A stretch of DNA of 38,488 bases from an uncultured Elusimicrobium sp. (GTDB taxonomy: Bacteria; Elusimicrobiota; Elusimicrobia; Elusimicrobiales; Elusimicrobiaceae). Shown here piece after piece: positions 953-28,824 of this stretch. The number at the start of each line of letters is the position of its first letter. Within the stretch, counting starts at the first letter, position 1. The notes beneath the pieces were generated by a model. The model ran no database searches. It was not told where the DNA came from and saw only the letters and a program-made list of their open reading frames with translations. The position numbers and the translations under genes are program-made. Location: contig CACXER010000054.1 in NCBI GenBank assembly GCA_902766765.1, positions 1 through 38,488 on the forward strand, given 5' to 3'.

Positions 953-3112
953 ATGAAATTTGTACTACATTTATTGTTGTCTATGGTTTTGCTTAGCGGC
1001 GGACTTGCTCCGGCGTATTGCCAGCGTGGGGGCGGATTTATTAGAGGTGGCGGCGGAAAAGGCCACGTCGGTAAAAGCCGCTCGCAGCAGCGTATGGGGC
1101 GTAAAGGAAAACATCGCAGTTATCGGACGAAACAGGCCGGGGCCGATATCAGCAGACAATATAATCAAGGCAGGCGTGATATATCGGATATTGGCAACCG
1201 GGTAGCCGATCGGGTCCAACGGGCCGACTACCAAAGCAGTAGAAATCATATCACGTGGCATGAGGCCGCACGCGCAGAATTATACACTCCGCATGAGAAA
1301 CCCATCTCGGCTATGTATGCGGAAGATATTTTCATGGGTAAAATTTCTCTGGCGGACTTAACCCCTCAAGAACAAACCGAGTTTTTACTGGCAGAATTTC
1401 CCGGCCTGGTGGTGGAGGGTGAAATGGTGCCCTCGGCTGAGGTGTGGAAAGATGTTGTTCAAGAATATCGCTCTCGTCTTTTGAACGACCCTACAGCGCA
1501 ACAACAAGCCGATCCGATTTCCTACTGGGCCGAGCAGATGAGTTTGGTTACCAATGTGGGTTTTTTCGGTTCTACCGGAGATGAACTCTTTGTTATGGTG
1601 GCGGCTATGCGAAATTTCCCGCCTGAGTTGCAGCCGTTAACGGACGTAATTACCGTGCGGGCCTTACTCAATTTAAATGCCACCACTGCCCTCAATGATT
1701 TTGTAGACATGCGTTTAGCCCAGGTGGACGGAAAGGGCCGTCCGATGGTGTTGCCTGCGGTGTGGCGGGAATTCCCGTGGGAGATTGTAAAACGTATTCC
1801 CAATTCTCGTTTGGAGCCGGGAGGCGAAGGAAAAGGTATTTTGGTGGACCCGCATGTACAGGTAACGTTGGGACAGTATAACAGTTATAACTTGATGAAT
1901 TTGGACCCTTCGTACACGATGACTTCCAATTTCTTAAACTTGCGTCACGGGATGAATGATAAAATCAATGACTATGCATTTGTCGGGCAAGCCTCCCGCG
2001 GACAATTGGAGCAGGTCTTGCAACACCGCTTGCAACGCAGTTTTGAAGAAGCAGAACTTGTACAAGATAAGTATGGTTGGAATTTATCGGAACATTTCCC
2101 GTCAGCCAGCCCGCAATGGATACGGACGTTGACGGATCAAGGTGAATTGAAAGTGGAAAATATCTACCCGTATGCCCCCGATTATCTAACCGAAGATTTG
2201 CTCTTAGAGTACATGCTTACCAAACATAATATGGAAATCCGCAAATGGTACCCTATTATCAGTGCGCGTAATGTGCGGCTATACAATTCGTTTGCTACGC
2301 TTTACCGGGCGGCAAAACCGGCTATGCATCCGGCAGCGGAAGATATGGCCTGGTTAGCGGGGCAAGTGTCGAAACAAACACAGTATTTAGTGGTCGGCAA
2401 CGTTAACGTAAAGAATTGGGAGAAATATACCCTTCGCCTTATGCAACAATTGCACCGACAACATCCCGGGCGTCAAATTATCTTATTGGATCAGTACGGG
2501 GCTGTTGATTCGGTGTTGTGGACCATGCTTGATGGCCAGCGGAAAACAGGAGAAGATTTACTGAATATTGTAACCGACGTGGCGGAAAGTTCTATCTTAA
2601 AATCGGATATGGATATCAGACGGTTTGAAGATCCGTTGGAAGACGGAATCCTTGTTATTCAAAATGGGGATGGAGCCATTCCGTTTGAAAATACGTTGGA
2701 AGGGTTGCGGATTACTTCTCAGGCCTATATGAATCAAGTGGCACAGGTTCGGGCGGAAAATCCGGATGCGCTCATTGTTTTGTCAGTCAATCATATGTTG
2801 GCCGATTACAGTGTGCCTTATTCATTAGGGAGTAAATTGTACGGTCCCAACACATTTGTAACGCAGTTATCCGTCAATATGATGGAAGGCGGACAAGGAG
2901 AAACCTTGTTTGATGAAGTCATTTCTCCGGCTGAATCTGCTAATTTAGCGGGGGTGGAAACGGATCTCCATTTAACGGAAGATACCCCACTGCTAACCGA
3001 TATGCGGGTGTTGCAATTTAATAATGGTGTATTGCCCGCTCAGGACGGATTGCCGGCTACTCCCATCAACCGAGCTGTCGGGTTTGATGCACGCATTTTT
3101 GTATCCAAATAA
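953..3112 (+). CDS. Secreted Tiki/ChaN-fold paralog P1, active-site motifs lost
   Basis: 719 residues. GGGGAGG lies five bases upstream of the ATG. The N-terminus is a signal peptide probably cut as AYC|QR, followed by a Gly/Lys/Arg-rich basic stretch (residues 25-62). Residues about 118-450 form a block shared only with P2, including YAEDI, GFFG, ELQPLTD and YNSYN-hMNLD segments. Residues about 405-719 are shared with all four paralogs: YP....L..E.L...ML.KHN.E.RKWYPI, then MAWLAGQVS, then the PYSLG strand and a terminal VGFDARI. In P3 the equivalent region carries GEVH and GNAH. Here these positions read GNVN (482-485) and NHML (613-616), so metal-binding or catalytic residues of the ChaN/Tiki/erythromycin-esterase superfamily are absent. 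I infer a secreted non-enzymatic relative. Its own terminator follows, so it may be transcribed apart from P2-P4. The superfamily assignment rests on motifs only. Confidence 0.75.
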   Translation: MKFVLHLLLSMVLLSGGLAPAYCQRGGGFIRGGGGKGHVGKSRSQQRMGRKGKHRSYRTKQAGADISRQYNQGRRDISDIGNRVADRVQRADYQSSRNHITWHEAARAELYTPHEKPISAMYAEDIFMGKISLADLTPQEQTEFLLAEFPGLVVEGEMVPSAEVWKDVVQEYRSRLLNDPTAQQQADPISYWAEQMSLVTNVGFFGSTGDELFVMVAAMRNFPPELQPLTDVITVRALLNLNATTALNDFVDMRLAQVDGKGRPMVLPAVWREFPWEIVKRIPNSRLEPGGEGKGILVDPHVQVTLGQYNSYNLMNLDPSYTMTSNFLNLRHGMNDKINDYAFVGQASRGQLEQVLQHRLQRSFEEAELVQDKYGWNLSEHFPSASPQWIRTLTDQGELKVENIYPYAPDYLTEDLLLEYMLTKHNMEIRKWYPIISARNVRLYNSFATLYRAAKPAMHPAAEDMAWLAGQVSKQTQYLVVGNVNVKNWEKYTLRLMQQLHRQHPGRQIILLDQYGAVDSVLWTMLDGQRKTGEDLLNIVTDVAESSILKSDMDIRRFEDPLEDGILVIQNGDGAIPFENTLEGLRITSQAYMNQVAQVRAENPDALIVLSVNHMLADYSVPYSLGSKLYGPNTFVTQLSVNMMEGGQGETLFDEVISPAESANLAGVETDLHLTEDTPLLTDMRVLQFNNGVLPAQDGLPATPINRAVGFDARIFVSK

Positions 3113-3124
3113 TAGTGAGGTATC

Positions 3125-3159
3125 AAAAGGCCCAAGCGAAAAATGGGCCTTTTGTTCCT
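3125..3159 (+). terminator. Rho-independent terminator after P1
   Basis: A perfect 10-bp stem (3125-3134 with 3144-3153) and a TTTTGTTCCTT tail, beginning 12 bases after the P1 stop. It separates P1 from the P2-P3-P4 run. The left arm contains the right copy of the 14-bp direct repeat (3124-3137). Confidence 0.75.
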
Positions 3160-3220
3160 TGTGAGGTGTTGGCATATATTACTAAAATATAAAGAACATC
3201 TATTTTTAAATTGTATTTTT

Positions 3221-5509
3221 ATGAAGAAAGTTATTCCAATTTTAGTGGGGGCGGGATTACTTGTCGCCTCGCCGTCAGAGGGGTATGCTCAACGAGGAAA
3301 AGGATTTTTATCGTCGGGGCCGGCGGTTGCGGGCCGTAAAAGTTGGCGCACGAAGAAAACACTTTCCAAAATTGGGCAACAGTACGGAAAGCATAATAAC
3401 GGCAATTATATTGCGGCTCAATTAAATAAAAATGTTACGATTGGTACCGTGGCCGCCAAGCACTTAAATTTGCAATCGCAGCCGGGGCTTATTACCGGCA
3501 AATGGAAAAAAGGTTGGCATGCGGCCGTTACGAATATGTTGCCGCAGGAGATCCGAGCCGATTTGCCTTTGCCATATGCGCAAGATATTCTTTTAGGTAA
3601 TTTACCGTTGGAAATCCTTTCGGATGTAGAAAAGGAAAATTTATTCCTTTCCCAGTTCCCTATTTTAGTATTGGAGGAAAACTGGGTGCCGACCAATTCC
3701 CAATGGGATTATGCCCTTCGGTATTACCACAGTGTGCTATTTGATAAACTCCCGGAAACCGAGCCGGCCGATGAACTCAATCGGTGGGCCAAAAAAATGG
3801 CGGCGATTACCAACTTGGGGTTTTTTGGAAAACTGGAACAGGGCCAATGGATAGAAGTAGCCGCCACGCAACAATTCCCGTTGGAATTGCAACCGTTTAC
3901 GGATTTGATTGTCATGCGGGCGTTGCTCAATATAGGGGAAGAATCTTTTATTGACGACTTTGTATACCATCGTTTAAGCGCCGTTGATAAAAAGGGCCGT
4001 CCGCTTAAATTGCCGGCGGTGTGGAATGATTTTCCGGATTGGGTATTGTCCTATATCCCGGAGGGCCGCATTGAACAACCGGCTCCGCCTGCAAAAAAGA
4101 GTGCGGATCAAACTACGTTGTTGCGACGGGTAAAAAATTATTTTCAGCGTCAAAAGGCGCGTTTAGTTAAACCAAAACCGAAACCGGGTGATGAGGCCTT
4201 GCAGTATGCTTTAGGCAGATATAACAGTTATAATATTTTGAATTTGGATTCGTCCCCGGAAATGACGCAACTGTATATGGAATTGCAACACGGGATGGTT
4301 GATAAATTTTCCGATTTGGTGTTCGGAAATTCCCCGAATTTGGTAGAACAATTGGAATATCGGCTTTCTCGCAGTTACGAAGATGCCCAACTGTTTAATG
4401 AACGGCAGGATTTGCCCGCTTTATTCCCATACGTATCCCGAGAATGGATTTACTGGGATTTGGAGGGGGGAGTAGAAAAATTGTATCCGAATGCAGCCAG
4501 ATTTTTACCGGATGAGTTGGTGCCACTTTACATGCTTATCAAACACAATTTGGAAGTACGGAAATGGTGGCCGATTGTTCAACAATGGCAGATAGACGTG
4601 TTGCAGGCCACGGAACAATTACAAAAAATTCAGGTGCCGGTAACGCACGATTCATCGTTGGATATACGCTGGTTGGCGGGGCAAATTACGCCGCAGATCC
4701 AGCATGTATTAGTTGGTGATACGGCCGCGGCTCCTACTTTTTTGAAAGATGTGTTTGAATTGGCACGCGAATTGCGTAAACGCTATCCGAACCGGGACAT
4801 TGTTTTGCTGAGTCAGCACGGTTTCGGGTTACCGGAGGGCGTGTCGGATGATCCGGAAGTCCGCCGGATGTGTAAATCTCAGCATGTGTTGAAGCATTTG
4901 GTACAAGCCGAAAAAGATGGCGTGTTGGCTCAAACTGTACGCGACCAATATATTCAAACCGAGTTGTTGCGTGATCCTTTTTATGAGAATTCCACGGGGC
5001 TCCCCACCTTGGCGGCATTTGAAGAACCGGCCTCGTTAAATGGTGCCGGAGGGAGATTGGGACAGGAGCGTTTTGCGGAAACTTTTGAAGGTTTACGTTT
5101 GGTTTCGGATGCTTACGTGGAGCAGTTGGAAGCATTACGCGATAAACACCCCGATGCACTATTTATTGTGGCGGCCGATGCCAGACAAGTGGATTATGCG
5201 GTTCCTTATTCGTTAGGTAGTTATTTGGCTGGGCCGGACACGTATGTGGCGCTGCTGGGGGTACAACGATTTAGTTCGATATTGGATGCAAAGTCGCTCA
5301 GTTTGTTTGAACGGAATTTTTATCCCTTTGAAATGACGCGCGTGTTGCGAAGCGGACAGTTCGGTTCAAACGGCCCGGAAGATGCTCGCTTTTTGTTTGA
5401 TAGAGTATTGCAATTTAAGGGCGATGTGCCCACGGGTGAATTTGGTCATCCGGTTCGGGCTTCGTGGTTAGTTGGGTTTGATGTACGTATCAACCGATCG
5501 ATGGAGTAG
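3221..5509 (+). CDS. Secreted Tiki/ChaN-fold paralog P2, active-site motifs lost
   Basis: 762 residues from the ATG at 3221. An upstream in-frame ATG at 3143 lies inside the P1 terminator hairpin, and only the 3221 start gives a clean signal peptide (MKKVIPILVGAGLLVAS...GYA|QRGKG). No clear Shine-Dalgarno precedes it. Layout matches P1: a basic linker, a P1/P2-specific block (residues about 118-460, with LPYAQDILLGNLPLE, NLGFFG, FPLELQPFTDLI and RYNSYNILNLD) and the shared C-terminal domain (about 420-762). A Lys/Pro-rich insertion (about 285-325) is unique to P2. The motif positions that are GEVH and GNAH in P3 read GDTA (499-502) and DARQ (653-656), so both are lost. The terminal strand is VGFDVRI. 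P3 begins 10 bp downstream, so P2-P3-P4 look like one operon. No function is known to me. Confidence 0.75.
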   Translation: MKKVIPILVGAGLLVASPSEGYAQRGKGFLSSGPAVAGRKSWRTKKTLSKIGQQYGKHNNGNYIAAQLNKNVTIGTVAAKHLNLQSQPGLITGKWKKGWHAAVTNMLPQEIRADLPLPYAQDILLGNLPLEILSDVEKENLFLSQFPILVLEENWVPTNSQWDYALRYYHSVLFDKLPETEPADELNRWAKKMAAITNLGFFGKLEQGQWIEVAATQQFPLELQPFTDLIVMRALLNIGEESFIDDFVYHRLSAVDKKGRPLKLPAVWNDFPDWVLSYIPEGRIEQPAPPAKKSADQTTLLRRVKNYFQRQKARLVKPKPKPGDEALQYALGRYNSYNILNLDSSPEMTQLYMELQHGMVDKFSDLVFGNSPNLVEQLEYRLSRSYEDAQLFNERQDLPALFPYVSREWIYWDLEGGVEKLYPNAARFLPDELVPLYMLIKHNLEVRKWWPIVQQWQIDVLQATEQLQKIQVPVTHDSSLDIRWLAGQITPQIQHVLVGDTAAAPTFLKDVFELARELRKRYPNRDIVLLSQHGFGLPEGVSDDPEVRRMCKSQHVLKHLVQAEKDGVLAQTVRDQYIQTELLRDPFYENSTGLPTLAAFEEPASLNGAGGRLGQERFAETFEGLRLVSDAYVEQLEALRDKHPDALFIVAADARQVDYAVPYSLGSYLAGPDTYVALLGVQRFSSILDAKSLSLFERNFYPFEMTRVLRSGQFGSNGPEDARFLFDRVLQFKGDVPTGEFGHPVRASWLVGFDVRINRSME

Positions 5510-5519
5510 GAGTAGAAAT

Positions 5520-6752
5520 ATGCGTTGTTGGAAATTTTTATTTATTTTATTATGTTTTAGTGGTGTGATGGCCTACGGACAGAGAATGCCGTTTAAGGTA
5601 AATGCTAAGCCATCTGTCCATGTAGGGCATCATGCACAAAGTAAGAAGTCCAAGGCCTCCAAGCGCTTGGCGGCGTTGTCCCCTGCGCAGTTGTCTGAAC
5701 GTGTGCAAACTACGTACCGCCGTGCTAAAAAAATGCAAGATCATTACCCGGAAGTGATAGACTGGGGCGGACCGAGCAGGCAGTATATGCCGAGTTCTTC
5801 TCCGTTGACGCCGGATGCGCTCAAGTTTGCTAAATTAAATCCGAAGATCTTATATCCGCACTTGCCTGTATTATCGGCAGAACAATTAGCCCAATGCTTT
5901 TTAATACAGCATAATTTGGAACTTGTCAAATGGATGCCTAAACAGGAAGAATTACGAAAGTATGTGCAAGAGCATATGTCCTTATTGCGAGCCCATCAAG
6001 TGAAAGTTCCTGTGGCGGCACATCAAGAAATGGCTTGGCTGGCCCGGCAAGTATCACCGGAAACACAATATTTGCTACTTGGGGAAGTCCATGCACCCGG
6101 CATTGGGGACACGTTACCTGATTTGTTGCGCGAATTACGGCGTATGCAAAAGGACCGTCAGATTTTCTTATTTACGGAATTTCTACCCGAACGGCAAGAA
6201 TGGGGGCACTTGGATGTCGGCACTTTGTATTTTCCGGATCAAAAGTCGATTTGGAATACCGCCTACCTCCAGCGTATTCCCGTTATTGGGTTAGAGCCCT
6301 ATTTTATCTATCAGACTCAGCCGCAACTGATGGAGCGGGATCCTGCCCACCAAGGCCGTACCATGCCGGGGAATAATATTTGGCAATCGTTAGCCGGGGT
6401 GCGTGTACGCAATCAGCGTTGGATGCAAATTTTGCAAGAATACCGCGCGCAATACCCCGAGGCCTTGTTTATTGTCTATGCCGGTAATGCACATGTATCG
6501 TATTCGGAACCTTATTCTTTGGGGAATCAGTTGGCCAAGCAAAATACGCTTGTGGCTTTACTATATCCCGAACAAGATATATGGCAGACGTCCGGTCGGG
6601 CTTCTGTTTTGACCAGTAAATTTGATGCTTGGACGGATGGTAAATTTGTTAACGATAATATCGTGCAATTTGACTTGCCGGTTTTTTCGCGTGTCGTTGG
6701 ATTTGATATTCGTATCCGGCTTCCCGGAACGGTGTTTGTAATTGATGAATAA
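5520..6752 (+). CDS. Secreted Tiki/ChaN-fold paralog P3, motifs intact
   Basis: 410 residues from the ATG at 5520. I chose this over the in-frame ATG at 5472, which overlaps P2, because it has GGAG/AGGAG upstream and opens a signal peptide (MRCWKFLFILLCFSGVMAYG|QR). It lacks the large N-terminal block of P1/P2 and goes from a Lys/Ser-rich linker to the shared domain (about 110-410). The superfamily hallmarks are complete: LLLGEVH (G188, E189, H191), a second acidic strand FTEFLPE (E220), IPVIGLEP (253-260) and YAGNAHVSY (G322, H325). This is the pattern of ChaN (haem-binding uptake), TraB and Tiki (metalloprotease-like) proteins, so this member could bind haem or metal or be a hydrolase. Which of these applies cannot be told from the sequence. 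It ends VGFDIRI plus 13 residues. Confidence 0.75.
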   Translation: MRCWKFLFILLCFSGVMAYGQRMPFKVNAKPSVHVGHHAQSKKSKASKRLAALSPAQLSERVQTTYRRAKKMQDHYPEVIDWGGPSRQYMPSSSPLTPDALKFAKLNPKILYPHLPVLSAEQLAQCFLIQHNLELVKWMPKQEELRKYVQEHMSLLRAHQVKVPVAAHQEMAWLARQVSPETQYLLLGEVHAPGIGDTLPDLLRELRRMQKDRQIFLFTEFLPERQEWGHLDVGTLYFPDQKSIWNTAYLQRIPVIGLEPYFIYQTQPQLMERDPAHQGRTMPGNNIWQSLAGVRVRNQRWMQILQEYRAQYPEALFIVYAGNAHVSYSEPYSLGNQLAKQNTLVALLYPEQDIWQTSGRASVLTSKFDAWTDGKFVNDNIVQFDLPVFSRVVGFDIRIRLPGTVFVIDE

Positions 6753-6775
6753 TTGTTTGAACTGAGAAGGAAAAT

Positions 6776-7972
6776 ATGAAGAAGATAGTAGTTTTATTGT
6801 TGGCTGTCAGTTGTTTGCTAGGAGTTTGTGCGGGGGATATGTATGCCCAGAAAGGACGGATTCACAGATATCGCGCCCAAGGGAAAAAATACAAAAAACC
6901 GTCCCGTCCCGAAAAGCGAGCCAAGTCACATCCTTTAACCAACTTTCGCCAGGCCAGTACAATTACTGCCCAGGAAACAGAGGCAGGACTGCAACTTGGC
7001 GATTTCGTTCCGCCGGCCTCGCAATTTACGATAGGGAAGAGAAAATCGGTGTATGAGCCGTTAGCGGGTTTGCGTTCGCATGCGCTGTATCCTCAATCCA
7101 ACTTGCCAAGTACGCAAGAATTGGAGGAATACTTTTTAAATCAGCATAACTCGGAAATTGTAAAATGGATGCCTATTTTACAAGCCCATCAAAAAGCGTT
7201 GGAGGAAAATTTACCGCAGTTGCGTGAAGCCCAACAAATAATAGACCATCCCGCTCGCCTGGATATGAAATGGCTGGCAGGGCAACTTCCCGACGAGGCC
7301 CGCTATTTGCTGTTGGGAGAAAAAGACCACGGTGTATACGCGGTACACCAACAAGTCAAATATTTGCTGGGAGAGTTACACCGCCGTTATCCGCACCGGA
7401 AGATTATTCTATTTACGGAATTTTTACCTCAAGGCCGCTCGTGGATATATGCGGCGCGTTATCCCGGCTTGTGGGGGTATTTGCCCTTATTTTTAGCCGG
7501 GCAAAAAGTGCGTATTCCGGTAGTCGGTTTGGAACCGAAGTTTGTATGTGAAACCCAACGGACGATGGTGGAAGATCCGGAGCAACAAACCGGGGGACTG
7601 ATGTGGGCGTCCATTGAGGGGGTTCGTATCCGCAATGAAAGATGGCTCGCACGTTTGGAAGCGGCCCGCCGTCAATATCCCGATGCATTGTTCGTAGTCT
7701 ATACCGGGGCCGGCCACGTAGATTATAACGAGCCCTATTCATTGGGCCGTTCGCTACAAGGGCCGCAAACACAAGTGGTGTTGTTCCATCCCAGATATCG
7801 GGTAGAAAACGGACGGCTCAAAGACTTGATTACGCCGTTTGATATGGTAACCCAAGGAGAATTTTCTGACCGCATTGTACGGTTTAGTTCGGATGAAATG
7901 GCCAAATTAGCCGGATTTGATATTCAAATCGGTGTACCGGAGTTATTAGAAACGATGTTCTTTGATGAGTAA
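6776..7972 (+). CDS. Secreted Tiki/ChaN/erythromycin-esterase-like paralog P4
   Basis: 398 residues, 23 bp after P3, with GAGAAGG upstream. The signal peptide is MKKIVVLLLAVSCLLGVCAG..MYA|QK, followed by a Lys/Arg-rich linker (27-52). The shared domain spans about 100-398. Its first motif is GEKDHG (181-186): the His is one residue later than in P3's GEVH, matching the GE-xx-HG spacing of erythromycin-esterase-like proteins. The second motif is intact (TGAGHVDY, G311-H314), as are FTEFLP (E215) and IPVVGLEP (247-254). It also has extra His residues near the first motif (H191). The C-terminal strand is AGFDIQI. It is probably the last gene of the P2-P4 operon, which ends at the terminator at 7994-8024. 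Activity or substrate cannot be assigned. Confidence 0.75.
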   Translation: MKKIVVLLLAVSCLLGVCAGDMYAQKGRIHRYRAQGKKYKKPSRPEKRAKSHPLTNFRQASTITAQETEAGLQLGDFVPPASQFTIGKRKSVYEPLAGLRSHALYPQSNLPSTQELEEYFLNQHNSEIVKWMPILQAHQKALEENLPQLREAQQIIDHPARLDMKWLAGQLPDEARYLLLGEKDHGVYAVHQQVKYLLGELHRRYPHRKIILFTEFLPQGRSWIYAARYPGLWGYLPLFLAGQKVRIPVVGLEPKFVCETQRTMVEDPEQQTGGLMWASIEGVRIRNERWLARLEAARRQYPDALFVVYTGAGHVDYNEPYSLGRSLQGPQTQVVLFHPRYRVENGRLKDLITPFDMVTQGEFSDRIVRFSSDEMAKLAGFDIQIGVPELLETMFFDE

Positions 7973-8082: not shown

Positions 8083-8115
8083 TTGCACATACTCATTTTA
8101 CAAGGAGGAGTACGT

Positions 8116-8685
8116 ATGAAAAAGGAAAGTTGTTTGTTGGACTTTTTAAACGCAAAAGGTTTTACGCTAATAGAATTATTAGTGGTAGTGCTCATCATTG
8201 GTATTTTAGCGGCGGTGGCGATGCCGCAATATCAAAAAGCCGTAGAAAAATCTCGCGCCACGCAAGCCCTGGCGGTACTTAAAACAATCGGACAAGCGCA
8301 AGACGCGTATTACATGGCAAACGGGGAATATGCCCAATCGTTGGATGAATTGCCCGTAGATATTTCGTGGACGGGAACGGAAAAATGGACCGCAAGTAAT
8401 TATCCTACCTACTCTAACGGGCAATGGTCTTTGCAAGTGGTTCGTTGGACGCCGACCACTTGTGGGATCTATATGGGCCGGTTGACCGGTAAATATGCGG
8501 GAGCGGGATTTATTTATTGGCTTAAAAATCCTTATGATGATATTGAGGAAGGAACTCTGTCTTGTGCCGAACGTTTATCCAATGGGTTGACGTATAACGG
8601 TGTTAGTGGCAGTTATTGTGGAAAAGTTATACAGGTTTTCGGTAACCGGATAAATGTAAGTGCATTGAATGTTTGGCGCATGTAG
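8116..8685 (+). CDS. Type IV pilin-like protein a (G|F prepilin leader)
   Basis: 189 residues from the ATG at 8116, preceded by AAGGAGG; the earlier in-frame ATG at 8083 overlaps the promoter. A 15-residue leader rich in Lys and Cys ends in AKG|FTLIE, a class III signal for prepilin peptidase cleavage after Gly and N-methylation of Phe, with Glu at +5. The hydrophobic assembly helix is followed by the usual YQKAVEKSRATQAL, and then YYMANGEYAQSLDEL, a motif shared by all five window pilins. The C-terminal head is unique, with three mature Cys that could form a D-region disulfide. The protein may be a major or minor pilin or a type II secretion pseudopilin; no assembly genes are nearby. It is monocistronic with its own promoter. 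Confidence 0.85.
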   Translation: MKKESCLLDFLNAKGFTLIELLVVVLIIGILAAVAMPQYQKAVEKSRATQALAVLKTIGQAQDAYYMANGEYAQSLDELPVDISWTGTEKWTASNYPTYSNGQWSLQVVRWTPTTCGIYMGRLTGKYAGAGFIYWLKNPYDDIEEGTLSCAERLSNGLTYNGVSGSYCGKVIQVFGNRINVSALNVWRM

Positions 8686-8706: not shown

Positions 8707-9171
8707 TTAATTCATTCCCCATGTTCCTGCTGTTAAATACGTGGCAAACGCAAGCCATAGTCCGTACGGTGCCAGCAGCCACGCAGCAGTGCGGTTGATT
8801 TGCCAAAAAGCGCGGAATAAAAATCCCAGTTCTGTCAGCATGGCTACAATTAAAATCAGCCCGCCCGTCAAACTGTGTGCCCCGAAAAATACCGGAGTCC
8901 AACACGCATTTAACGCCAGTTGCCCTACAAATAACATCATCGCATGTCCGTGTATTTTTTCGCGGAATGTCAAAAAAGCACTCGTCCCCAATAAAATATA
9001 TAGCGCGCCCCATACAAGACTAAATAAAAAATCCGGCGGCGTTAGCGGCGGGTGGGCTAAGGTGCGGTACCACGCCATATTGTTAAACACATAGGGGATG
9101 CCGAATAAACCGGGCAGTTGGCAAATTACCAGCCAAACGACGAATTTTACTAACATAGTTCCGTTTTTCAT
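8707..9171 (-). CDS. tspO: TspO/MBR (tryptophan-rich sensory protein) family membrane protein
   Basis: 154 residues with five predicted transmembrane helices, the typical TspO length and topology. Family landmarks are present: WY..LAHPPLTPPD (residues about 34-48), F..VWGALYILLG, NACWTPVFFG (the N..W..FF motif) and APYGLW.AFATYL near the C-terminus. TspO proteins bind porphyrins or cholesterol-like ligands in the outer or inner membrane and influence tetrapyrrole and stress responses. The role in this organism is unknown. It is convergent with pilin a (22 bp between stops) and has no strong Shine-Dalgarno before its ATG. Confidence 0.85.
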   Translation of the reverse strand: MKNGTMLVKFVVWLVICQLPGLFGIPYVFNNMAWYRTLAHPPLTPPDFLFSLVWGALYILLGTSAFLTFREKIHGHAMMLFVGQLALNACWTPVFFGAHSLTGGLILIVAMLTELGFLFRAFWQINRTAAWLLAPYGLWLAFATYLTAGTWGMN

Positions 9172-14047: not shown

Positions 14048-14563
14048 ATGAAAAAGAAAAGTTGTTTGTCGGGCATTTTACGTACAAAAGGGTTTACGCT
14101 GATTGAACTCCTCGTAGTCGTACTCATCATCGGCATACTCGCCGCGGTAGCCGTGCCGCAATATCAAAAAGCGGTGGAAAAAGCACGGATGAGCGAAGCC
14201 ATTGGTATGTTATCCACTATTGCCAAAGCGCACCAAGTTTTTTATATGGCTAACGGGCGGTATGCTTTTTCTAATGACATTGGTTTATTAGATATAGAAG
14301 TTCCGGGAGAGGTAGATAATTCCTGGGGCACAGGGCGCATTCGTACCAAGTATTTTATTTATTCACCCAATGTGGCTACAGGAAATGGTCCGGGGCCCAT
14401 GTTGGCTTTTGCCCAACATGTTCCGCAAGAAGGTGTCGCAGAGATTTATCAATTATTTATTTCCCAAGCGGAGCCAAACCGGGTTCAATGTTCCTTGTAT
14501 GATGGGGCCAACGCTGTACAACGCAAATTGTGTCAAAAATTAAACGCTAAAGGCACGCTATAA
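14048..14563 (+). CDS. Type IV pilin-like protein b (G|F prepilin leader)
   Basis: 171 residues, with GGAGGG upstream of the ATG. The leader MKKKSCLSGILRTKG|F is 15 residues like that of pilin a, including the Ser-Cys-Leu segment. The assembly helix carries Glu at +5 and is followed by YQKAVEKARMSEAIGML and FYMANGRYAF. The head domain is short, with two Cys (both near the C-terminus). The assembly helix is the same as in pilin a while the head is unrelated in detail, as expected for duplicated pilin cassettes. It stands alone between the GNAT-fold gene and purB; nothing suggests co-transcription with either. Its product could be a pilin or a pseudopilin. Confidence 0.85.
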   Translation: MKKKSCLSGILRTKGFTLIELLVVVLIIGILAAVAVPQYQKAVEKARMSEAIGMLSTIAKAHQVFYMANGRYAFSNDIGLLDIEVPGEVDNSWGTGRIRTKYFIYSPNVATGNGPGPMLAFAQHVPQEGVAEIYQLFISQAEPNRVQCSLYDGANAVQRKLCQKLNAKGTL

Positions 14564-17553: not shown

Positions 17554-18063
17554 CTAAAGTTTCATCGGATAACACAACATATTGCTGTCGGAATGGCATG
17601 CCGTGGCCGTTTGACCGCCAAAACTTTTACAGAGATTTACAATATTCGCGTCGGCCTGTTCAGGATAATAACAACAATTCCAAGAATCTTCATCTAAGTA
17701 ATAATAAACGTAGATGTCGTTCGAACGATCGTTAATTGGACCGGCAATTGATTTGGCATAAATACTGTTTTGCCCAACTTCCAACAATTTGATTTGCCAG
17801 TTTTTAGTGGTTTGTATAATTGCACTTTCTGTTTGTTGGCCGGGTTCTATATCTAATTCATCAAATGTTTCGGCGTATTTTCCGTTTGCCATAAAGTACA
17901 ATTTTTCGGCGGCGGCTAATGCTTTAAGGGCCACAACCGCTTCGGATACTTTTGCCTTTTTAACTGCTTTTTGATATTGCGGTAGTGCCACCGCCGCCAA
18001 TATGCCGATAATGAGTACGACCACTAATAATTCTATTAGCGTAAATGCTTGTGTGTTTTTCAT
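17554..18063 (-). CDS. Type IV pilin-like protein c (A|F prepilin leader)
   Basis: 169 residues. It has a 6-residue leader MKNTQA followed by FTLIELLVV, so cleavage would be after Ala rather than the usual Gly, with Glu at +5 intact. Next come the assembly helix, [17 protein letters not shown] and [18 protein letters not shown]. The head has five Cys, including a vicinal CysCys pair (SWNCCYY) and a C-terminal [10 protein letters not shown] pair. A Shine-Dalgarno GGAG sits eight bases before the ATG. The 5' module from -35 to codon 9 is nearly the same as in pilins d and e. The gene is monocistronic and convergent with purA across the palindrome. Confidence 0.85.
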
Positions 18064-26616: not shown

Positions 26617-27536
26617 TGGTTAAATTCCCCGCTGAAAAAATTTCTTGTTTAGGATTGGGTACATGGCCGTTTGGCGGCGGTTACGATTGGGGCCCGCTTG
26701 ACGAAAATGCGGCCCGAAAAGCCGTGTTTGCCGCCTTGGACGCGGGAATAAATTGGATAGATACGGCCCCGGTGTACGGCGACGGCGAGAGCGAAAAACT
26801 GTTGGGCCGCATCTTACAAGGTCGTCGGGCAGATGTGTTTCTGGCCGGCAAATGCGGACTTGTTAAAAACGGCAGTTGGACCGACCACGATTTGCGCCCG
26901 CAAACGATCCGCAAACAACTCAAAGAAACACTTACCCGCCTGGAAACCGACTACCTGGACTTATACCAAATCCATTACCCCGACCCGCAAGTGCCGCTTG
27001 CGGACGCGGTGGGGGAACTGGTACGCTTGCAAGGGGAAGGGGTTATTCGTCACATCGGTTTATGTAATGTATCGTCGGCGCAAATTCAAGCGGCGGCGGA
27101 AGTAACCTCTATTTTTTCGGTGCAAAACGAATTTTCGCTCTTACACCCGCAAGCGGGATTAAATGTGTTTGATGCATGCCGCCGCTGCGGGGCGCGGTTT
27201 ATCGGCTACGGCGTTTTATGCGGGGGAATTTTAAGCGGCAAGTACAAAACCGCGCCGAATTTGCGCCGCGCCGATGCTCGCAATTATTTTTATAAATGTT
27301 ACCGCGGCGAAGCGTTTGATAAAGCCCAACTGGTTGTCGCTCGCGTGCAACAAGTGGCCGCACGAAAATACACTTCTGCGTCGGCGGTAGCCATCGCATG
27401 GGCGCTGCACAAACCGGGGGTGTCAAGCGTGCTTTTTGGGGCGCGTAATGAACAGCAAGTTGCGCAAAATGTAGTGGGGAAAACATTAAACCTAACTGCG
27501 TCGGAAATTGAATTTTTAGAGGGAGCCCATGAATAA
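26616..27536 (+). CDS. Aldo/keto reductase
   Basis: 306 residues from the ATG at 26616, which overlaps the previous stop (TAATG). A longer open frame runs through the upstream gene but is not protein-like there. It has the TIM-barrel family hallmarks with a complete catalytic tetrad: Asp49 and Tyr54 (WIDTAPVYG), Lys79 (FLAGKCG) and His120 (LYQIHYPDP). The N-terminus LGLGTWPFGGGYDWG and the C-terminal VSSVLFGARNEQQV (NADP-binding) fit bacterial AKRs of the YccK/GSP69 kind. Substrate unknown. The 3' end overlaps the radical SAM gene by 8 bp. Confidence 0.9.
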   Translation: MVKFPAEKISCLGLGTWPFGGGYDWGPLDENAARKAVFAALDAGINWIDTAPVYGDGESEKLLGRILQGRRADVFLAGKCGLVKNGSWTDHDLRPQTIRKQLKETLTRLETDYLDLYQIHYPDPQVPLADAVGELVRLQGEGVIRHIGLCNVSSAQIQAAAEVTSIFSVQNEFSLLHPQAGLNVFDACRRCGARFIGYGVLCGGILSGKYKTAPNLRRADARNYFYKCYRGEAFDKAQLVVARVQQVAARKYTSASAVAIAWALHKPGVSSVLFGARNEQQVAQNVVGKTLNLTASEIEFLEGAHE

Positions 27537-28824
27537 TAGCGAACTGGAAAATTACGTGAAAACCGTTTTGCCGCAAGTGGGCGTGAATAAACTGCGCGAA
27601 CTGGTGCGCCTCGTGTACGAAATTGCCAAGCGCGAAAAAATTGCCCCGCAAGCAGTCTTAACTCCATCTAAAAACCAGAATTTTGAAAGTGTAAAAACCG
27701 CCCTGTTAAAACGCCGTTACCCCGTCAATTTTAAAGCGTCTGCCCGAAATCAATTTTATTTGCCTAAGTTGGAACTGGACGAAAAACTGCGCGCCGATTT
27801 AACACCGCGTCCGTTTTGCCCCAAAACTGTTTATATAGAGTCGTCCGTCAAAGATTCGCCGCTTGCGGCGCGGGTACGGGCCGCATTTCCCAATGCAGAG
27901 TTCAAAGAAACCGACGGTAAAACACAAGTGGGGAGTGCGGACTTTTCACGCCGCACCGAAACGCTCCTTATCCACCGGGAAAAATATGACTTTTTAAAAC
28001 CGTGTCCGTGTAGTTGCGGCTCGGCGGGATGTGGGTATAATCTTATCAATTTGGGTTTTGGTTGCCGCTTTGAGTGTGAGTATTGTTTTTTGCAACAATA
28101 CCAAAATTTGCACGCCATTTTATGGCCTGCCAATGTGGATGAATTTTTGCAAAAATTAGACGGCGGAAAATTTAATAAAGGACCGTTTGACCGGCCGCGT
28201 ATCGGCAGCGGAGAATTTACAGATTCTTTGGTGTTTGACGATATTACACAGTATTCCCAAGCGCTCGTGCCGTTTTTCCGTGAGCGCCCGCAATGGCAGT
28301 TTGAGTTTAAAACAAAAAGTGTAAATATCGGCGGGCTACTAAATGTAGGCGGGTGTGAAAATGTAGTCGTGTCGTGGTCGGTCAATTCTTCTAAAATTAC
28401 AAACGAAGCCGAGCATTTTACGCCGGATTTAACCGCCCGTTTACAGGCCGCGTGCGAAGTGGCCCGTGCCGGGTATCGTATTGGGTTTCACTTTGACCCG
28501 GTGGTAATTTACGACGGATATAAAGAGGAGTATGCGCGTACCGTGCAAAAAATGGCAGACACGCTGCCCGCGGATAAAATCGCGTGGATCAGCGTGGGGA
28601 CACTGCGCTTTAGCCGCGAACTTAAAAAGCAAATTGAAGCGCGTTTTGCGCAGAATTTTATATTGGATGGCGAATTTTTACTAGATTTTGACGGTAAAAT
28701 GCGCTACGGCGACAAGCAACGCTTGGAAGTTTACCAATTCCTCATGCCGCTACTTCGCAAAACCTTTCCCAAAGCACACGTGTATCTGTGCATGGAGGAC
28801 CCGCAAATTACAAAATTATTTTAG
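27529..28824 (+). CDS. splB: Radical SAM protein of the spore photoproduct lyase family
   Basis: 431 residues. The radical SAM cluster motif is C179-xxx-C183-xx-C186 (GCRFECEYCFLQ), preceded by a Cys-rich segment PCPCSCGSAGCGYNLINLGFGC. SPL-like landmarks are RPFCPKTVYIESSV, GSGEFTDSL, EFKTKSVN, VSWSVNS, GYRIGFHFDPVVIYDG, and the C-terminal VYLCMEDP. Spore photoproduct lyase reverses the thymine dimer of UV-irradiated spores. An N-terminal helical extension (about 1-75) is present. The organism shows no sign of sporulation in this window, so the substrate may be another DNA lesion or something else. It overlaps the aldo/keto reductase gene by 8 bp and the convergent pilin d stop by 4 bp. Confidence 0.8.
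   Translation: MNNSELENYVKTVLPQVGVNKLRELVRLVYEIAKREKIAPQAVLTPSKNQNFESVKTALLKRRYPVNFKASARNQFYLPKLELDEKLRADLTPRPFCPKTVYIESSVKDSPLAARVRAAFPNAEFKETDGKTQVGSADFSRRTETLLIHREKYDFLKPCPCSCGSAGCGYNLINLGFGCRFECEYCFLQQYQNLHAILWPANVDEFLQKLDGGKFNKGPFDRPRIGSGEFTDSLVFDDITQYSQALVPFFRERPQWQFEFKTKSVNIGGLLNVGGCENVVVSWSVNSSKITNEAEHFTPDLTARLQAACEVARAGYRIGFHFDPVVIYDGYKEEYARTVQKMADTLPADKIAWISVGTLRFSRELKKQIEARFAQNFILDGEFLLDFDGKMRYGDKQRLEVYQFLMPLLRKTFPKAHVYLCMEDPQITKLF

What the first reader, a model, noticed from the sequence alone, without database searches (positions are those of the whole stretch)
953..7972. Tandem family of four secreted Tiki/ChaN-like proteins, two with erased active-site motifs
P1-P4 are clearly paralogous from the YP....HN.E..KW segment to the C-terminus. 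P3 has GEVH (188-191) and GNAH (322-325) and P4 has GEKDHG (181-186) and GAGH (311-314), the paired motifs of the ChaN/TraB/Tiki/erythromycin-esterase superfamily. At the same alignment positions P1 reads GNVN and NHML and P2 reads GDTA and DARQ. P1 and P2 instead share an extra block of about 330 residues. An active pair (P3, P4) next to two probable pseudoenzymes suggests a multi-subunit secreted system, for example enzyme plus inhibitor, scaffold or receptor. I know of no description of such a locus.
Basis: partly seen in the sequence, partly recalled or inferred. Interest (0 to 1): 0.82.

Follow-up and report, generated by a model that had tools for sequence, protein, structure and literature searches.

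The report
Secreted Tiki-like enzymes with dead paralogues
A gut Elusimicrobium carries a row of four related secreted proteins, two that look like working hydrolases of the Tiki/erythromycin-esterase fold and two whose active sites have been wiped out and which have gained an extra module found only in this genus; the enzyme family is greatly multiplied in this genus and appears undescribed, but what it cuts or binds is unknown.

Summary
P1-P4 (953-7972) are intact, closely spaced paralogues with signal peptides. P3 and P4 carry GExH / GxxH; P1 and P2 do not. P3's model (pLDDT 84.5) matches EreC, ChaN, HopBA1, BcR135, RRSP and PMT ahead of every other fold (Z 14.4-8.8), so the Tiki/Ere superfamily is right at fold level; Pfam PF04187 is seen only weakly. 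The family is multiplied in one genus of gut Elusimicrobiaceae (up to 16 copies counted per genome, arrays of up to 11 genes). Among 238 members, ten active-site residues are near-universal; P1 and P2 have each lost nine, and only two other proteins are comparably eroded. P1 and P2 are sisters: one erasure, then duplication, with frames kept open. The "extra block" is a separate genus-restricted helical module, also at the N-terminus of about 20 other secreted proteins; it fused independently to an intact Tiki domain in another species. Best reading: P3 and P4 are exported metal-independent hydrolases; P1 and P2 are non-catalytic binding or scaffold proteins. An obligate enzyme-plus-inhibitor system is unlikely, because nearly all other arrays lack an eroded member. 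Substrate and partnership are untested. New variant of a known kind.

The parts
953..3112 (+). P1, 719 aa: signal peptide, basic Gly/Arg-rich segment, genus-specific N-module (about 107-342), Tiki-fold domain (about 400-719) with 9 of 10 active-site residues replaced
3221..5509 (+). P2, 762 aa from the likely start at 3221: same architecture as P1, 9 of 10 active-site residues replaced (ORF is open from 3143)
5520..6752 (+). P3, 410 aa: signal peptide, basic segment, Tiki-fold hydrolase domain with the intact set G188 E189 H191 E220 G257 E259 R297 N298 G322 H325
   Evidence: model mccd91031f540
6776..7972 (+). P4, 398 aa: Tiki-fold hydrolase domain, intact active site with GExxH spacing (GEKDH) and GAGH
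1271..1978 (+). N-module of P1 (mostly helical; shared with P2, with proteins on G000 C11 and C100, and with about 20 other proteins of the genus)
3527..4321 (+). N-module of P2

Best explanation
The locus is one tandem array of a lineage-expanded family of exported Tiki/erythromycin-esterase-fold proteins of gut Elusimicrobiaceae. P3 and P4 (like about 98% of the family) keep the 2-His/2-Glu plus Arg constellation. They are most likely metal-independent hydrolases that use a His/Glu-activated water to cut ester or peptide bonds outside the cytoplasm. P1 and P2 descend from one such enzyme that lost the whole active site once, was joined to a genus-specific helical N-module, and then duplicated. 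They keep the fold but cannot use this chemistry. They most likely act as non-catalytic capture or scaffold proteins, binding substrate or partner through the emptied pocket and anchoring or recruiting through the N-module. Shown: ORFs, homology, motif loss, module sharing, fold prediction, sisterhood of P1 and P2. Inferred: export (signal peptide by eye), hydrolase activity, scaffold role, any contact with P3/P4.
For: Fold: the P3 model's best 13 structural neighbours are all Tiki-superfamily proteins, Z 14.4 (EreC), 14.0 (ChaN), 13.6 (HopBA1), 10.4 (RRSP), 9.0 (PMT), against 8.4 for the first unrelated fold. Of 53 family members, 46 hit PF04187 at E up to 0.1, best 1.1e-6. Active site: the conserved P3 E189, H191, E220 and H325 have nearly the spacing of RRSP E3900, H3902, E3930, H4030, each essential by mutation (PMC6254334), and match EreC E47/H50/E78/H289, where an Arg (R261) is also implicated (PMC7979712). 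Erasure: 238 members surveyed; P1 and P2 each differ at 9 of 10 sites, while 14 of 21 (P1) and 16 of 21 (P2) other conserved positions are kept (Fisher p=0.006 and 0.001). P1+P2 are sisters with support 0.998 even with active-site columns removed. Frames are open although neutral drift of 0.1 substitutions per site would put about 8.5 stops in P1. P1 keeps the fold: top five matches are all Tiki-superfamily, Z 10.6-8.5. The N-module is joined to an intact Tiki domain independently in G017 (L062), and the two families co-occur across the genus (27 both, 9 Tiki only, 1 module only, 10 neither; p=0.00015, not corrected for phylogeny).
Against: No activity, substrate or contact is shown. Only 2 of 49 multi-gene arrays hold an eroded member, so active members need no pseudoenzyme partner. 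The PF04187 match is below the curated cut-off for P4 and absent for P1-P3. The P1 model used active homologues in its alignment and is weak in the N-terminal half (pLDDT 70 overall). The P1-vs-background gap in Z is small (8.5 vs 7.8).
Confidence: 0.45

Rival explanations
1. P1 and P2 are neofunctionalised stand-alone binding proteins (ligand, glycan, host or prey surface) that only share an operon with P3/P4 and never touch them.
For: Eroded members are rare, and one of them (L169 in G027) stands alone; the second array of the same genome has none; the N-module occurs on many proteins that have no Tiki domain.
Against: P1-P4 are closely spaced in one array; the module/Tiki fusion arose twice and the two families co-occur, which hints at a functional link.
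Confidence: 0.3
2. P1/P2 are inhibitors or immunity proteins for P3/P4 (enzyme plus inhibitor pair).
For: They are homologous, co-encoded, and first in the array; the eroded G008 gene is also first in its array.
Against: 47 of 49 multi-gene arrays, including the second array of the same genome, have active genes without an eroded one.
Confidence: 0.08
3. The family is a ChaN-like haem-binding family, and the conserved His residues are haem ligands rather than catalytic.
For: PF04187 (ChaN) is the only Pfam family matched by most members; ChaN 2g5g is a top fold match, Z 14.0.
Against: EreC is an equal match; the full 2-His/2-Glu plus Arg-Asn set is conserved, as expected of a hydrolase; no haem-uptake transporter was found among the window proteins scanned.
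Confidence: 0.1
4. P1 and P2 are decaying pseudogenes or a MAG artefact.
For: Some other copies in the genus contain stop codons, so decay does occur in these arrays.
Against: Two open frames of 719 and 762 aa, with structural positions kept, GC by codon position like their neighbours, and deep divergence from each other without stops; 32-38% identity rules out an assembly duplicate.
Confidence: 0.04

Closest known systems
Erythromycin esterases and BcR135/BcR136 (Ere family)
   Same: Top fold match of P3 (EreC Z 14.4, 208 residues, 3.5 A); same catalytic Glu/His/Glu/His set plus Arg; P4 has the GExxH spacing
   Different: About 14% identity; family members carry signal peptides and are tandemly expanded; the equivalent of the Ere minor lobe and the substrate were not tested
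ChaN (PF04187, Cofac_haem_bdg)
   Same: Fold (Z 14.0, 189 residues, 3.6 A); weak sequence match in 46 of 53 members
   Different: Below the Pfam cut-off for P4, none for P1-P3; no evidence of haem binding
RRSP/DUF5 effector domain and PMT C-domain (TIKI superfamily)
   Same: Fold (Z 10.4 and 9.0); RRSP has nearly the same 2-His/2-Glu spacing as P3; PMT is a published case of the fold without that motif (PMC6254334), a precedent for P1/P2
   Different: Domains of large toxins acting in host cells; no sequence-level relation found; the N-module is not related to them by any test here
Tiki/TraB metalloproteases
   Same: Same superfamily by published definition (PMC6254334)
   Different: Metal dependent; no Pfam TraB match found

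Membership tests
Tiki/Ere/ChaN superfamily (P3, P4) | Parallel beta-sheet core flanked by helices, as in EreC/ChaN/RRSP | tested here: met
   P3 model pLDDT 84.5; the 13 best structural matches are all superfamily members, Z 14.4-8.8; P4 by homology
Tiki/Ere/ChaN superfamily (P3, P4) | 2-His/2-Glu motif (GExH, E, GxxH) with conserved Arg | tested here: met
   E189, H191, E220, R297, H325 in P3 and equivalents in P4; near-universal in 238 members
Tiki/Ere/ChaN superfamily (P1, P2) | Same fold | tested here: met
   Homology to P3/P4; P1 model top five matches all superfamily, Z 10.6-8.5, weaker than for P3. P2 by homology only
Tiki/Ere/ChaN superfamily (P1, P2) | 2-His/2-Glu catalytic motif | tested here: not met
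   9 of 10 active-site residues replaced in each; they are not catalytically competent members
Pfam PF04187 (ChaN haem-binding) | Score above the curated cut-off | tested here: not met
   P4 18.8 bits vs cut-off 27.7; none for P1-P3; 46 of 53 members match weakly
ChaN haem-binding proteins | Haem binding | not testable with these tools
   Needs purified protein
Erythromycin esterases | Macrolide ester hydrolysis; minor-lobe four-helix bundle | not tested
   Activity needs an assay; the lobe was not compared residue by residue

The most novel reading that the evidence does not exclude
Gut Elusimicrobiaceae run a previously undescribed, genus-specific secreted hydrolase system in which catalytically dead Tiki-fold paralogues, carried on a shared docking module, capture substrate or assemble and direct the active paralogues; the same docking module assembles about 20 other exported proteins.
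Probability: 0.2. Interest if true: 0.75.

Novelty: new variant of a known kind. Interest (0 to 1): 0.52.

Why it matters
A gene family that takes up to 16 counted copies in a 1.2-1.8 Mb genome must matter to these gut and rumen bacteria, yet it sits below the cut-offs of public family models and I found no description of it. The rare members with the whole active site erased give a natural comparison of catalytic and binding roles on one fold. The accompanying N-module is a new, genus-restricted building block of exported proteins.

Tried and rejected
Pfam and NCBIfam on P1-P4 and family members: only weak PF04187. PDB by sequence profile for the Tiki domain and the N-module: nothing significant. 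Foldseek alone for P1 gave no match at E<=0.001; VIA-align was needed. No fold can be named for the N-module: it was modelled only as part of P1, with two sequences, at moderate confidence. A shared origin of the eroded protein L169 (G027) with P1/P2, suggested by the first tree, vanished when active-site columns were dropped, so it is treated as an independent loss. Viral contigs held no relatives. Papers: nothing on Tiki-fold arrays in Elusimicrobiota. The first genome-contig query failed for lack of conserved stretches.

Full report
CHECK. P1-P4 lie head to tail on the + strand with gaps of about 10-110 bases if the likely starts 3221 (P2) and 5520 (P3) are used. Each starts with a hydrophobic signal peptide ending in an A/G/C-Q junction (my reading of the sequence; no signal-peptide program was on hand), followed by a basic segment (net charge +7 to +12 over 40 residues). 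Their homology is beyond doubt.

ORGANISM AND DISTRIBUTION. Relatives named in GTDB genomes are 'uncultured Elusimicrobium sp.' and Elusimicrobiaceae/Elusimicrobiales MAGs; at least one is titled from sheep rumen and many carry RUG isolate names, which I take to be rumen genomes. A profile search of 248 genomes of the phylum found the Tiki-like family in 38, 36 of them in the window's genus and one in each of two other genera of the same family. Copy number is high: 16 members were counted in G003, 15 in G006 and G051, and 6 in the window's own genome (lower bounds, since only fetched regions were counted). Most lie in tandem arrays of 2 to 11 genes with a median gap of 10 bases. The window's genome has a second, two-gene array on contig C30 with both active sites intact.

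FOLD. P3, modelled from an alignment of 53 family members, has pLDDT 84.5 and pTM 0.85. Its 13 best structural matches are all Tiki-superfamily structures: EreC (Z 14.4), ChaN (14.0), 2qgm and BcR135 (13.7-13.4), HopBA1 (13.6), RRSP (10.4-9.8) and PMT (9.0-8.8). The best unrelated folds, SRP-type GTPase and tyrosine-kinase P-loop domains, have Z 8.4. By sequence the link is faint: 46 of 53 members match PF04187 at E<=0.1, best 1.1e-6, and P4 only at 0.0017, below the cut-off.

ACTIVE SITE. Across 238 members, ten positions are nearly fixed: G188, E189, H191, E220, G257, E259, R297, N298, G322, H325 in P3 numbering. The four acidic/His positions E189, H191, E220, H325 have the same order and nearly the same spacing as the 2-His/2-Glu motif of RRSP (E3900, H3902, E3930, H4030), where each residue is needed for cleavage (PMC6254334), and correspond to E47/H50/E78/H289 of EreC, for which a metal-independent mechanism with R261 was proposed (PMC7979712). 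I infer that P3 and P4 are hydrolases of this type; no activity has been shown.

ERASURE. P1 and P2 each differ from the family at 9 of the 10 positions. Of 21 other conserved positions they keep 14 and 16 (Fisher p=0.006 and 0.001). Only two further members are comparably eroded: L074:2892-4367 in G008 (6 of 10), first gene of a five-gene array, and L169:4246-5508 in G027 (6 of 10), standing alone. A tree without active-site columns makes P1 and P2 sisters (support 0.998) near P3 and P4, and places the other two elsewhere, so there were probably three separate losses. P1 and P2 share E220Q and N298S, as expected if the erasure began before they split. Their frames are open despite deep divergence, while a simulation of neutral drift at 0.1 substitutions per site gives about 8.5 stops in P1. 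P1's C-terminal domain is still predicted to have the Tiki fold, though active homologues were in its alignment.

THE EXTRA BLOCK. The region shared by P1 and P2 contains a module of about 235 residues (P1 107-342) that occurs at the N-terminus of about 20 further proteins of 400-1530 aa, those read by eye beginning with a signal peptide, with different C-terminal parts: ankyrin repeats, coiled-coil-like regions, several hydrophobic segments. The window's own genome has it on C11 (1438 aa) and C100 (902 aa). In 248 genomes of the phylum it was found in 28, all of the window's genus. In G017 it is joined, through a hydrophobic stretch, to a Tiki domain with an intact active site, which belongs elsewhere in the tree, so the fusion arose twice. 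Genomes with the module nearly always have the Tiki family (not corrected for phylogeny).

READING. The most economical account is an expanded family of exported hydrolases in which one lineage lost catalysis completely and, with an added module, became binding or scaffold proteins.

LIMITS. The member survey is limited to places found by search, so strongly eroded copies may be missed. No sister strain with P1/P2 was available, so selection on them could not be measured. Model coordinates were not readable, so the geometry of the site could not be measured.

Noticed in passing
window 8083-8685, 14048-14563, 17554-18063(-): Three type IV pilin-like genes (N-methylation motif, ComP-like) scattered in 10 kb, the first one directly behind P4.
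   Followed up: partly
L047:2957-7273 (-), own genome contig C11: 1438-aa protein with signal peptide, the P1/P2 N-module and a C-terminal part with many hydrophobic segments; no Pfam match. Similar 1,430-1,570 aa proteins occur in many species of the genus.
   Followed up: partly
L050:8364-10034 (-): N-module protein ending in ankyrin repeats, in a row of three N-module genes (L050 6902-12502).
   Followed up: partly
L062:13000-15795 (+), G017: Single protein joining N-module, a hydrophobic stretch and an intact Tiki domain.
   Followed up: yes
G003, G004, G020, G031, G047 (rows with stops inside): Several Tiki copies in other arrays contain a stop codon, so real decay also happens in these arrays.
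   Followed up: no
window 27529-28824: Spore photoproduct lyase-like gene (PF20903) in a bacterium not known to sporulate.
   Followed up: no
window 8707-9171 (-): TspO/MBR family gene close to the array; TspO binds porphyrins in other bacteria (own knowledge), which would fit a haem link but is not evidence for one.
   Followed up: no
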